Assembly: GCA_013178275.1 (NCBI GenBank)
Contig: JABLWZ010000005.1
Span: 124,001 to 188,000 of the forward strand
Direction of reading: 5' to 3'
Source of the DNA: Bacillota bacterium
GTDB taxonomy: Bacteria; Bacillota; Ch66; Ch109
DNA: 64,000 nucleotides
Numbering within the stretch: position 1 is the stretch's first letter; each line of letters opens with the position of its first letter. Position numbers and translations under genes: made by a program. The notes beneath the pieces are model-generated. The model was not told the DNA's origin and did no database searches. It saw only the letters and a program-made list of their open reading frames with translations. Below, one piece after another: positions 44,096 through 54,920 of this stretch.

Positions 44096-44180
44096 AGAAA
44101 CAGATTTTTGGCTGAATGTGAAAGACAACGGCGTCTTGAGACATAGGGCTAAGTTAACCTATGGAGAGGCGCTTTTTCTT
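44096..44180 (+). promoter_or_regulatory. ANTAR-type antitermination leader of the glutamate synthase operon
   Basis: Hairpin AAGAC-AACGGC-GTCTT (44122-44137) has a hexaloop with A at 1 and G at 4, the ANTAR-binding signature. Its 3' arm is also the 5' arm of a terminator: GCGTCTT (44131-44137) pairs with GAGGCGC (44166-44172), enclosing CATAGG/CCTATG, followed by TTTTTCTTT. The two folds exclude each other. A weaker upstream hairpin with loop ACAGAT (44100-44105) may be the partner stem-loop. Regulator: the ANTAR protein at 49339. Confidence 0.7.
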
Positions 44181-49338: not shown

Positions 49339-49923
49339 ATGAGCAGATTAAGAGTGCTATTGGGTGAACCGGATGGCCGATCGCGCAACCGAATAAAAAA
49401 AATGCTGGAGGCCGAGGGGTACCTGGTAGTAGCGGAGACAGACGATGGGATGGGGACTCTCCGCCAGGCGCGGATGGTTAGGCCCGACATAGCGGTGGTC
49501 AGCGAGGACCTGATGGGGATGAAGATCTCGCAGGTGATAACGGTCCTTCTGGAAGACCGTATCTGTCCTACCGTGATGATTACCGGCAGCAGTTCCTCCG
49601 AGGTGATAGAAGCGGCCAAGCAGGTAGGGGTTCTCGGATTGGTCAGCCGGCCGGTACAGAAGCACATGCTGGTGGCTTCACTGGAACTGGCGTATGAGCA
49701 CTACCGGCGGATGTCCGAGATGGAACATGAGATAGAAGAACTCAAGGATAAACTGGAAAACCGCAAGCTGATCGAAAAGGCCAAGGGGATAGTGATGAGC
49801 AATCTGAGACTTTCGGAAAGCGAGGCTTACCGGTATATACAGACCCGCAGCATGAACCAGAAGACGCCCATGAAGCAGATTGCCCAGGCCATCATCCTGG
49901 CTTTCGAAAATAGCGAAAAATGA
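49339..49923 (+). CDS. ANTAR-domain response regulator (NasT/NitR-like antiterminator)
   Basis: 194 residues. Receiver-like domain 1-120, but the phospho-acceptor Asp position is Ser in [13 protein letters not shown], and the conserved Lys is Arg (LVSRPV), so classical phosphorylation is doubtful. A coiled coil ([17 protein letters not shown]) leads to the ANTAR domain 135-190 ([35 protein letters not shown]), which binds hexaloop RNA hairpins. It sits between the glutamate synthase operon and glnA. Two matching leaders at 44096 and 52583 are likely targets. Overlaps the ATG at 49920. Confidence 0.9.
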
Positions 49924-49949
49924 TTAAAAAACAGGAGGGGAAGATACCA

Positions 49950-51278
49950 TTGGCTGCCACTAAAGAAGACATTCTGAGACAAGTTAAAGACCTGAACGTG
50001 AGATTCGTCTACCTGCAGTTGATCGACATCACCGGGATCCTAAAGAGCGTTACCATACCAATCTCCCAGCTGGAGAAGGCGTTGGACGGGGAATTGATGT
50101 TTGACGGTTCCTCGATCGAAGGGTATGTGCGGATCGAGGAGTCCGACATGTACCTGAAGCCTGACCTGGACACCTTTGTGGTGCTCCCCTGGAGGCCGCG
50201 TGGGGAGGCGGAGGCCCGCCTGATCTGCGACGTCTTCAATCCCGACGGGACTCCGTTCGCGGGATGCCCCCGCTGCAACCTGAAGCGGGTGGTTAAGGAG
50301 GCCGCTGACATGGGGTTTGGGATGCAGGTTGGACCGGAGGCCGAGTTCTTCCTCTTCCATACCGACCGGGAAGGAAACCCCACCACCCTGACCCATGACC
50401 AGGCGGGGTACTTCGACCTGGCCCCGATCGACCTTGGAGAAAACGCCCGGCGCGACATGGTGCTGGCGCTGGAGGAGATGGGTTTCGAGGTTGAGGCGTC
50501 CCACCACGAGGTTGCCCCGGGACAGCATGAGATCGATTTCAAGTACGGCTGTGCCGTGAACACCGCCGACAAGATCGCCACCTTCAAGCACGCCGTGAGG
50601 GTTATCGCCCAGCGGCACGGGCTGCACGCCAGCTTCATGGCCAAACCCGTGTACGGTGAGAACGGTTCCGGGATGCACTGCCACCAGTCGCTGTTCACTG
50701 GCAAGGAAAACGCGTTTTTCGACCCGAACACACCCAACCAGCTCAGCCAGATTGCATTGAGCTACATGGCCGGGGTCCTGGCTCACGCGCGCGGACTGGC
50801 CGCTGTGACCAACCCCACGGTCAACTCATACAAGCGTATCGTCCCGGGTTACGAGGCCCCGGTGTACATCGCCTGGTCCGAACGCAACCGCAGCCCACTC
50901 ATCCGCATTCCCGCGAGGAGAGGACTGGGCACTCGGATCGAGGTAAGACACCCCGACCCGTCCTGCAACCCTTACCTGGCCCTGGCGGTTATGCTCAAGG
51001 CGGGTCTGGACGGGATCAAGAACAAGATGGTGCCCCCCGCGCCGGTGGATGAGAACCTGTACGAGATGAACACGGCGGAAAGGGAGAAGCGGGGCATCGC
51101 GTCGCTGCCCGGCAGCCTGGAAGAAGCCCTGCAGGAGCTGCAGAAGGATAAGGTCATCCAGGAGGCCCTGGGCGATCATATCTACAACCGCTTCGTGGAA
51201 GCCAAGATGCGGGAGTGGGACGAGTACCGGACCCAGGTTCACAAGTGGGAACTCGACCGCTACCTGACCCTTTTTTAA
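49950..51278 (+). CDS. glnA: Glutamine synthetase type I, copy 1
   Basis: 442 residues from TTG 49950, 11 bases after AGGAGG, which aligns with the start of copy 2; the ATG at 49920 would add ten residues. ATP + NH3 + glutamate to glutamine. GSI core: [78 protein letters not shown]. About 440 residues without the extra insert of adenylylated GSI-beta, so GSI-alpha. Probably feedback-inhibited rather than adenylylated. About three-quarters identical by eye to copy 2. Confidence 0.95.
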
Positions 51279-51306: not shown

Positions 51307-51336
51307 TTGACAACATCTCAGGGATAGGCCTATGAT
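51307..51336 (+). promoter_or_regulatory. carA promoter
   Basis: TTGACA (51307-51312) and TATGAT (51331-51336), 18-base spacing. A small GGCTG/CAGCC hairpin follows at about 51342-51359 without a T-run after it. Confidence 0.65.
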
Positions 51337-51386: not shown

Positions 51387-52571
51387 ATGGAGGGTTACCT
51401 GGTTCTAGCCGATGGAACCGTGTACAAAGGAGAATCTTTCGGAGCGGAAGGTCCTGCAGTCTCCGAGGGCGAGGTGGTGTTCAACACCAGCATGACCGGC
51501 TACCAGGAGCTGCTCACCGACCCTTCGTACAGCGGGCAGATAGTCACCCTGACTTACCCCCTAGCGGGTAACTACGGGGTAAACCTTATCGACGACGAAT
51601 CCAACCGGATTCAGGTGAAGGGTCTGGTGGTCCGGGAGTCCTGCGAGTCACCCAGCCACTGGCAGAGGGAGTATACCCTGGGACAATGGCTGAAGTCGCA
51701 GAACATCATCGGCCTGTCAGGGATAGACACCCGCTCGCTGACCCGGAAGATACGGAGGTACGGCACCATGAACGGCATCATCGTGTCGGGCCGCCGTACC
51801 GAACAGGAACTGGAGCGGATGGCTCAGAACCTGAAAGAGAGCACCGGATGGGAGGGGTGCGACCTGACTGCGGTGGTCACCGCCGACGCCCCCTACCTGA
51901 TACCCTATAGACCGGGCCAGGGGGACAGCGATCCCTTCCTGGACGGCTCGCTGGTCAAAGACGTCAGACCCGGAGACCTGGGGCCAAAACAGCAGGGGGT
52001 CCCGCGCCTGGTGGTGGTGGACTACGGGGTCAAGCGCAACATCCTCCGAAACCTCGCGGGTTACGGGTGCGAGCTGGTGGTCGTTCCGCAGAATGCTTCC
52101 GCCGAGTCGATTATAGGGTATGATCCTGATGGAATCGTACTATCCAACGGGCCGGGGGATCCTAAAGAGGTTCGGGGGGCGATCGAGACGGTCCGTTCGC
52201 TGCTTGCGACCCGGATACCGACCCTGGGTATCTGCCTGGGCCACCAGATCCTGGGGCTGGCCCTGGGAGGCAACACCCGCAAGATGCTGTTCGGCCACCG
52301 GGGAGGAAACCACCCGGTCAAGGACCTGGCCAGCGGTAAGATATACATCACCTCCCAGAACCACGGCTACATGCTGGAAGAGGAGTCGCTGGACCCATCG
52401 GTCATCGAGATCACCGCCATGAACGGCAACGACGGGACCCTGGAAGGATTCCGCCACCGGGAACTCCCGATCGTCTCTATCCAGTACCACCCCGAAGGGA
52501 ACCCCGGGCCCGATGACTCGAAGTACCTGTATAAAGAGTTTTTCGATCTGTTAAAGAAGCGAACCGCTTAA
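51387..52571 (+). CDS. carA: Carbamoyl-phosphate synthase small (glutaminase) subunit
   Basis: 394 residues. Hydrolyses glutamine and channels ammonia to CarB for arginine and pyrimidine synthesis. N-terminal CarA domain (FNTSMTGYQELLTDPSYSGQ), then class I amidotransferase with Cys in LGICLGHQILGLALGG and His-Glu in SIQYHPEG. No carB or other pyr/arg gene follows; the next gene is glnA copy 2. ATG preceded by GGGAG. Its placement in a nitrogen operon is unusual. Confidence 0.94.
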   Translation: MEGYLVLADGTVYKGESFGAEGPAVSEGEVVFNTSMTGYQELLTDPSYSGQIVTLTYPLAGNYGVNLIDDESNRIQVKGLVVRESCESPSHWQREYTLGQWLKSQNIIGLSGIDTRSLTRKIRRYGTMNGIIVSGRRTEQELERMAQNLKESTGWEGCDLTAVVTADAPYLIPYRPGQGDSDPFLDGSLVKDVRPGDLGPKQQGVPRLVVVDYGVKRNILRNLAGYGCELVVVPQNASAESIIGYDPDGIVLSNGPGDPKEVRGAIETVRSLLATRIPTLGICLGHQILGLALGGNTRKMLFGHRGGNHPVKDLASGKIYITSQNHGYMLEEESLDPSVIEITAMNGNDGTLEGFRHRELPIVSIQYHPEGNPGPDDSKYLYKEFFDLLKKRTA

Positions 52572-52582
52572 CCGAATAAACT

Positions 52583-52656
52583 GATACAAAGTAGTATCGC
52601 TTAGCAATGGCGCTGTTGTCTCTGGTATTTACCAGAGAAGATGGCGCTTGTTTTTT
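52583..52656 (+). promoter_or_regulatory. ANTAR-type antitermination leader before glnA copy 2
   Basis: Two hairpins with hexaloops that have A at 1 and G at 4: GATAC-AAAGTA-GTATC (52583-52598) and TAGC-AATGGC-GCTG (52602-52615), 3 bases apart, the classic ANTAR pair. The second overlaps the 5' arm of a 17-bp terminator: GCGCTGTTGTCTCTGGT (52610-52626) with its partner ending GGCGC at 52647, one mismatch, then TTGTTTTTT. Binding of the ANTAR protein should free glnA from termination. It lies 12 bases after the carA stop, so carA transcripts are also gated. Confidence 0.8.
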
Positions 52657-54025: not shown

Positions 54026-54055
54026 CCGGCCGTGATGGTGTGGGGAGGGATGGAA

Positions 54056-54532
54056 ATGGGGCCGCTGCGGGTGATATTAATCAACGAGGTGGACGGGGCG
54101 AGAAGAAACCTAAAAAACATGCTGACCCGGCACGGGTTCATCATTGTGGCCGAGGTGAAGGATGCCGCCTCGGGAATCATGGCTATCCTGAACACCGACG
54201 CGGAATTGATTATAACCGAGGATGCGACTGTCGGGTGGCAGGAGGTCGCTAACTGCGCGCAGGAGAGGCAGCGTGCGCCGGTTATGCTGATCGTTTCCCA
54301 GGAGGACGAGCGGATCGCCGAAGAGGCCGCCAAACTCGGAGTGCTGGGGTTGATCGTGCGCCCCCTGACGGAGCGCAATCTGGCGATAATGGCCAGGTTC
54401 ACCGCCCTGGGATCCCTTTTCGGGCTGCCGCGTACCCCGGCCCGGGTATCCGAGGGGTTGAAGGCCAAATCCCGGCGGGAACTGTTGAGCGATAAGGGAA
54501 TCCGGGTGATACTTAAAAAAGAACTGCCCTGA
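54056..54532 (+). CDS. Degenerate response-regulator receiver protein
   Basis: 158 residues from ATG 54056, 7-8 bases after GGGGAGG. Resembles the receiver of the ANTAR protein upstream (RVILINEVDGARRNLKNML; LGVLGLIVRPLTERNL) but has no conserved phospho-acceptor Asp (ELIITEDA) and no ANTAR domain; the C-terminus is short and basic. It may be a decoy or partner of the ANTAR protein. Lies between glnA copy 2 and the P-II gene, so likely in nitrogen control. Confidence 0.75.
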   Translation: MGPLRVILINEVDGARRNLKNMLTRHGFIIVAEVKDAASGIMAILNTDAELIITEDATVGWQEVANCAQERQRAPVMLIVSQEDERIAEEAAKLGVLGLIVRPLTERNLAIMARFTALGSLFGLPRTPARVSEGLKAKSRRELLSDKGIRVILKKELP

Positions 54533-54581
54533 TTGCCAAACCTGGATTTAAATGTATCATATTATTTAGGAGATGAGACTT

Positions 54582-54920
54582 ATGAAAAAGGTGGAGTGCA
54601 TAATCAGGCCGTCATGCCTGGATCAGGTCAGAAAGGCCCTGAGCGATATTGGGCTCAGGGGGATGACCGTGACCCAGGTCCTGGGCAGCGGCAACCAGCG
54701 CGGGACCAGGGAGTATTACCGGGGCAGGGCCCATGACCCGGAGCTGCTGCAGAAGATTAAGCTGGAGGTGGTGGTCGAGGACGTGGCGCTGGACCAGGTG
54801 CTGAAGATAATTTTGGAGAAGGCCCGCACCGGGGAGAAGGGTGACGGGAAGATTTTCATAACCAGCGTCGAACAGGCCATCCGGATCCGCACCGGGGAGT
54901 CGGGCATGACGGCGCTGTAA
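54582..54920 (+). CDS. Nitrogen regulatory protein P-II
   Basis: 112 residues from ATG 54582, 9 bases after TAGGAG. P-II fold with KKVECIIRPSCLDQVRKALS, T-loop region GNQRGTREYYRGRAHDPELL (with Tyr of the signalling loop) and GDGKIFITSVEQAIRIRTGE. Senses ATP/ADP and 2-oxoglutarate and controls nitrogen enzymes or transporters. No ammonium transporter is adjacent. Last gene of the nitrogen block. Confidence 0.93.
   Translation: MKKVECIIRPSCLDQVRKALSDIGLRGMTVTQVLGSGNQRGTREYYRGRAHDPELLQKIKLEVVVEDVALDQVLKIILEKARTGEKGDGKIFITSVEQAIRIRTGESGMTAL

What the first reader, a model, noticed from the sequence alone, without database searches (positions are those of the whole stretch)
52583..52656. Textbook ANTAR dual-hairpin antitermination leader before glnA copy 2
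Two adjacent stem-loops with hexaloops AAAGTA and AATGGC, both A at position 1 and G at 4. The second overlaps the 5' arm of a 17-bp terminator with a T6 run. The ANTAR protein gene is 2.7 kb upstream. The leader follows carA by 12 bases, so read-through from carA is also controlled.
Basis: partly seen in the sequence, partly recalled or inferred. Interest (0 to 1): 0.75.

Follow-up and report, generated by a model that had tools for sequence, protein, structure and literature searches.

The report
ANTAR antitermination leader before glnA
The RNA just before a second glutamine synthetase gene can fold either into a stop signal or into two small hairpins that an RNA-binding protein encoded nearby almost certainly grips to let transcription continue; this is a well-formed new example of a nitrogen switch already described in related bacteria.

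Summary
Window 52583-52614 holds two hexaloop hairpins (GATAC[AAAGTA]GTATC, 4-nt linker, AGC[AATGGC]GCT). The second overlaps the 5' arm of a 17-bp terminator (52609-52648) with T6 at 52651-52656. It is the only such element in the window; shuffled windows give 0.019 per window. A covariance model built without this sequence ranks it first in the 4.77-Mb genome. The same element precedes glnA, gltB, carA and ANTAR genes in related Bacillota. All 23 of 81 genomes with a model match encode an ANTAR protein; none of the 36 without one has a match. The genome has a single ANTAR-domain protein, encoded 2.7 kb upstream, with 8 of 11 EutV RNA-contact residues identical.

The reading as an ANTAR antitermination leader is well supported by sequence; binding and antitermination are untested. 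It is a new member of a known kind: Ramesh et al. 2012 reported such leaders before glutamine and glutamate synthase genes.

Beyond the finding: nifH carries a second dual-hexaloop leader; the glt operon has a single-hexaloop leader; the ANTAR receiver lacks the phospho-acceptor aspartate (Ser55); and a receiver-only, truncated ANTAR paralogue follows glnA2. What activates the system is therefore open.

The parts
52583..52598 (+). P1 hairpin GATAC[AAAGTA]GTATC, hexaloop 52588-52593
   Evidence: sequence, fold, held-out covariance model R3
52603..52614 (+). P2 hairpin AGC[AATGGC]GCT, hexaloop 52606-52611; 5' flank U and 3' flank G can add a wobble pair
   Evidence: sequence, growing-transcript folds: forms at 46-70 nt of transcript before the terminator displaces it, model R3
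52609..52656 (+). intrinsic terminator: 17 bp (52609-52648, one mismatch, tetraloop) plus T6 at 52651-52656; 5' arm starts inside the P2 loop, so P2 and terminator exclude each other
   Evidence: -25.2 kcal/mol terminator against -1.8 for P2
52703..54025 (+). glnA2, glutamine synthetase (regulated gene)
   Evidence: Pfam PF00120/PF03951; 74% identical to glnA1
49339..49923 (+). ANTAR regulator: receiver-like domain (Ser55 at the phospho-acceptor site) plus ANTAR domain 133-186; only ANTAR-domain protein of the genome
   Evidence: PF03861 E 2.8e-20; genome search; EutV/Rv1626 alignment; family alignment
51387..52571 (+). carA, small (glutamine amidotransferase) subunit of carbamoyl phosphate synthase; gene upstream of the leader and only carA found in the genome
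   Evidence: Pfam, genome search
44122..44175 (+). second candidate leader at the head of the glt operon: one hexaloop hairpin AAGAC[AACGGC]GTCTT whose 3' arm is the 5' arm of a terminator with a T-rich tail; no clear partner hexaloop
   Evidence: single hexaloop + terminator: 0.063 per shuffled window
49920..51278 (+). glnA1; overlaps the ANTAR stop codon, so no leader of its own
54032..54532 (+). receiver-only paralogue of the ANTAR protein; ANTAR domain truncated after its first helix
54573..54920 (+). glnB-type P-II signalling protein
   Evidence: PF00543

Best explanation
This is an ANTAR-protein-controlled transcription antitermination leader between carA and glnA2. By default, RNA polymerase coming through carA makes the 17-bp terminator and stops, so carA is expressed and glnA2 is not. 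When the ANTAR protein encoded upstream is active, its ANTAR domains bind the P1 and P2 hexaloops as P2 emerges. This holds P2 closed, so the terminator's 5' arm is not available and transcription continues into glnA2, the receiver-like gene and glnB (P-II). Shown here: the anatomy, the mutually exclusive folds, conservation with covariation, genomic co-occurrence with ANTAR genes, and conserved RNA-contact residues. Inferred: binding, direction (protein activates), and nitrogen limitation as the condition. Unknown: the activating signal, since the receiver lacks the usual phosphorylation site.
For: Dual hexaloop with A1/G4 and an overlapping terminator, chance 0.019 per window; 1 in 20,000 leader shuffles. 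Held-out covariance model: best match in the genome. The growing-transcript fold forms P1+P2 first and the terminator later; holding P1+P2 costs 11.9 kcal/mol, so a protein is needed. The same element with diverged stems but fixed loops occurs before glnA, gltB, carA and ANTAR genes in relatives; 6 of 8 pairs show changes on both sides, covariation score 0.486 against 0.229 shuffled. All 23 genomes with the RNA have an ANTAR protein; 0 of 36 without ANTAR have it (p 4e-8; 15 vs 0, p 1e-5, without seed genomes). In 80 glnA loci the matches fall only in Clostridia-type loci, none in Bacilli. The single ANTAR protein keeps R142, K143, K147, K149, E160, Y164, M172, N173 of EutV's RNA contacts. Same design and gene set as in PMC3369931.
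Against: No binding or expression data. The 4-nt linker is below the 5-12 nt of E. faecalis eut leaders, where 3 nt impaired induction, though some relatives have linkers as short. The P2 stem is short. The receiver lacks the phospho-acceptor Asp. Pair statistics lean towards the structure because seeds were chosen by pairing.
Confidence: 0.92

Rival explanations
1. An ordinary, unregulated intrinsic terminator that ends the carA transcript; the two small hairpins are accidental and glnA2 has its own promoter downstream.
For: The terminator is strong (-25.2 kcal/mol) and directly follows carA.
Against: Hexaloops with A1/G4 plus overlap are rare by chance and recur in relatives. No promoter-like site lies between terminator and glnA2 in the scan.
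Confidence: 0.05
2. A leader controlled by something other than ANTAR (glutamine riboswitch, T-box, PyrR-type or ribosome-mediated attenuation).
For: The gene is glnA, next to carA, both known targets of other leader types (general knowledge).
Against: No Rfam match at gathering threshold, and none of relevance at relaxed threshold. In 81 genomes the RNA was found only where an ANTAR gene exists.
Confidence: 0.02
3. ANTAR acts on this RNA but as a terminator-promoting or translational regulator rather than as antiterminator.
For: Some ANTAR targets lie over ribosome binding sites (PMC3369931).
Against: Here P2 overlaps the terminator, and the Shine-Dalgarno sequence (about 52690) lies outside P1, P2 and the terminator.
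Confidence: 0.03

Closest known systems
Predicted ANTAR leaders of Desulfotomaculum reducens and D. acetoxidans (glutamate synthase, glutamine synthetase, P-II; Ramesh et al. 2012, PMC3369931)
   Same: Same gene set, same dual-hexaloop/terminator design, leaders inside nitrogen operons, related Bacillota
   Different: Here only one full dual-hexaloop leader in the operon (others seen before ANTAR and glnA in relatives are absent), and carA precedes it
EutV/eutP antitermination leader of Enterococcus faecalis (EutV structures 6wsh/6ww6; PMC8934654)
   Same: P1/P2 hexaloops with A1/G4, P2 overlapping the terminator; 8 of 11 RNA-contact residues of EutV identical in the window protein
   Different: Ethanolamine genes; EutV has a phosphorylatable Asp and partner kinase EutW, the window protein has Ser55 and no kinase gene was recognised beside it; linker 4 nt instead of 5-12
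NasR/nasF and AmiR/amiE leaders
   Same: Same RNA architecture according to PMC3369931; from general knowledge, both are controlled without phosphorylation of a receiver
   Different: Different sensory domains and target genes

Membership tests
ANTAR-target antitermination leader (Ramesh et al. 2012) | two adjacent hairpins of at least 3 bp with hexaloops | tested here: met
   5 bp and 3 bp
ANTAR-target antitermination leader (Ramesh et al. 2012) | A at loop position 1 and G at position 4 in both loops | tested here: met
   AAAGTA and AATGGC
ANTAR-target antitermination leader (Ramesh et al. 2012) | intrinsic terminator overlapping P2, in the right orientation | tested here: met
   5' arm starts at loop position 4 of P2; T6 tail
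ANTAR-target antitermination leader (Ramesh et al. 2012) | short linker (5-12 nt in E. faecalis; 3 and 14 nt impair) | tested here: inconclusive
   4 nt here; relatives range from about 1 to beyond 15 nt
ANTAR-target antitermination leader (Ramesh et al. 2012) | genome encodes an ANTAR protein | tested here: met
   exactly one, 2.7 kb upstream
ANTAR-target antitermination leader (Ramesh et al. 2012) | covariance model match | tested here: met
   held-out model R3 27.6 bits, rank 1 in genome; own models, not the published one; Rfam has no match
ANTAR-target antitermination leader (Ramesh et al. 2012) | loop-dependent binding by the ANTAR protein and protein-dependent antitermination | not testable with these tools
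   needs gel shift and transcription assay
ANTAR response regulator (EutV type, two-component) | ANTAR domain with the RNA-contact residues of EutV | tested here: met
   R142, K143, K147, K149, E160, Y164, M172, N173 identical; Q168, K175, P177 differ
ANTAR response regulator (EutV type, two-component) | phospho-acceptor aspartate and acidic pocket in the receiver | tested here: not met
   Ser55 in place of Asp, Pro11 in place of the second acidic residue; 37 of 61 relatives keep Asp

The most novel reading that the evidence does not exclude
The regulator is a kinase-independent antiterminator. Its pseudo-receiver would be switched by a protein partner or small molecule, for instance the receiver-only paralogue (54032-54532) or P-II (54573-54920), both encoded downstream of the very leader it controls. 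That would give a closed feedback loop over glnA2, the glt operon and nif.
Probability: 0.2. Interest if true: 0.55.

Novelty: new member of a known kind. Interest (0 to 1): 0.3.

Why it matters
It adds a clean, sequence-verified example of ANTAR control over ammonium assimilation in a little-studied Bacillota lineage. It links glnA2, probably glt, and nifH to the genome's only ANTAR protein, which makes regulator-target pairing unambiguous and easy to test. The loss of the phospho-acceptor raises the open question of how such ANTAR proteins sense nitrogen.

Tried and rejected
Rfam at gathering and relaxed thresholds: no relevant family. The search for related loci with the single ANTAR protein found no relative in genome contigs, so glnA2 and the genome search were used instead. 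First alignment A1 was misregistered for four sequences and was replaced. Model R1 contains the window sequence, so its 36.3 bits were not used as proof; R3 was built without it. The further genome match at C1:13145 (22.8 bits) showed no terminator in the stretch read and was set aside as probable chance; its gene context was not checked. The C2:45665-45700 match before pycBA-like genes has a P1 that is a perfect palindrome, so it remains a weak candidate. Phage search with the leader: no match.

Full report
OBSERVATION. The sequence at 52583-52656 is as described. P1 is GATAC[AAAGTA]GTATC (52583-52598). After the linker GCTT comes P2, AGC[AATGGC]GCT (52603-52614). The terminator runs 52609-52648 with 17 pairs around one mismatch, and its tail has T6 at 52651-52656. 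The terminator begins at the fourth base of the P2 loop, so P2 and terminator cannot coexist. Only the carA-P1 distance needs correcting (11 nt). A scan of both strands for dual hexaloops (ANNGNN) with overlapping terminator finds exactly this element in 64 kb; dinucleotide shuffles give 0.019 per window, and 1 in 20,000 when only the leader is shuffled. The minus strand of the leader has no such element.

FOLDING. Folding the transcript at growing lengths shows P1 and P2 forming at 46-70 nt and the terminator taking over from about 73-76 nt. The terminator is worth -25.2 kcal/mol, P2 only -1.8, and holding P1+P2 costs 11.9 kcal/mol. Termination is therefore the default and a protein is needed to prevent it. 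This is a thermodynamic calculation, not a kinetic measurement.

RELATIVES. Using the ANTAR protein, related loci were collected from 81 genomes, and the same motif scan found elements before glnA, gltB, carA and ANTAR genes. Covariance model R1 finds further ones, including in 80 glnA loci of named organisms. There the matches fall in loci of Desulfotomaculum, Desulfovirgula, Pelotomaculum, Moorella, Desulforudis, Heliophilum, Dethiobacter and similar, and in none of the many Bacillus/Paenibacillus loci. In Desulfotomaculum copahuensis, leaders precede the ANTAR gene, the first glnA, the second glnA and the glt gene in turn, so leaders between genes of this operon occur repeatedly in the group. 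On 48 aligned elements (46 distinct), 6 of 8 pairs change on both sides and the covariation score is 0.486 against 0.229 for shuffles; the alignment is fitted to the structure, so this leans in its favour. All 23 genomes with a model match carry an ANTAR protein and 0 of 36 without do (Fisher p 4e-8; 15 against 0, p 1e-5, after removing seed genomes). A model without the window sequence (R3) still ranks the leader first in its genome: 27.6 bits, E 0.043.

THE PROTEIN. The genome has one ANTAR-domain protein, 49339-49923. Aligned with EutV (6wsh), it keeps Arg142, Lys143, Lys147, Lys149, Glu160, Tyr164, Met172 and Asn173, which contact the hexaloop in the EutV-RNA structure (PMC8934654); Q168, K175 and P177 differ from EutV, and Q168 and P177 are common among relatives. 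Its receiver has Ser55 where most relatives have the phospho-acceptor Asp, and Pro in the acidic pocket. Phosphorylation as in EutVW is thus unlikely and the signal is unknown. After glnA2 lies a receiver-like paralogue without a complete ANTAR domain, then P-II.

WIDER REGULON. Two more candidate targets lie in the same genome. At G000:C7:43863-43902 (L205), ATTAC[GATGAC]GTAAT and GGC[AAAGAC]GCT with an overlapping terminator stand about 55 nt before nifH, followed by two nifI-type P-II genes and nifD- and nifK-like genes (the nif names rest on sequence recognition, not on a family search); the relaxed motif occurs 0.0009 times in shuffles of the 80 kb searched. Loop 1 begins with G, as in some relatives' leaders. 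At window 44122-44175, a single hexaloop AAGAC[AACGGC]GTCTT overlaps a terminator ahead of the glt operon; since antitermination in EutV is reported to need both hexaloops (PMC8934654), this one may be only partly functional.

COMPARISON. The design, the gene set and the use inside nitrogen operons were predicted for Desulfotomaculum species, and nif leaders for Pelobacter, by Ramesh et al. 2012 (PMC3369931). This is a new member of a known kind, with confidence 0.92. The untested steps are binding, antitermination and the signal.

Noticed in passing
L205:3863-3950 (G000:C7:43863-43950): Dual-hexaloop leader with overlapping terminator before a nifH-nifI1-nifI2-nifD-nifK operon of the same genome, so nitrogen fixation is probably in the same ANTAR regulon.
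   Followed up: yes
44122-44175: Single hexaloop hairpin overlapping a terminator at the head of the glt operon; no clear second hexaloop.
   Followed up: yes
51387-52571: This is the only carA found in the genome although two carB genes lie elsewhere; a relative of the same order (L032) also keeps carA near its glnA/glt genes, with an ANTAR leader before it.
   Followed up: partly
54032-54532: Receiver-like protein with a truncated ANTAR domain between glnA2 and glnB; possibly a decoy partner or a decaying paralogue.
   Followed up: partly
L209:7622-7715 minus strand (G000:C2): GGC[AACGAT]GCC hairpin overlapping a strong terminator, preceded by a perfect palindrome, upstream of an ORF of about 50 codons and pycB/pycA-like genes; weak ANTAR leader candidate.
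   Followed up: partly
51307-51336: Near-consensus sigma-70 promoter (TTGACA-18-TATGAT) between glnA1 and carA, which could feed carA and the glnA2 leader independently of the glt promoter.
   Followed up: no
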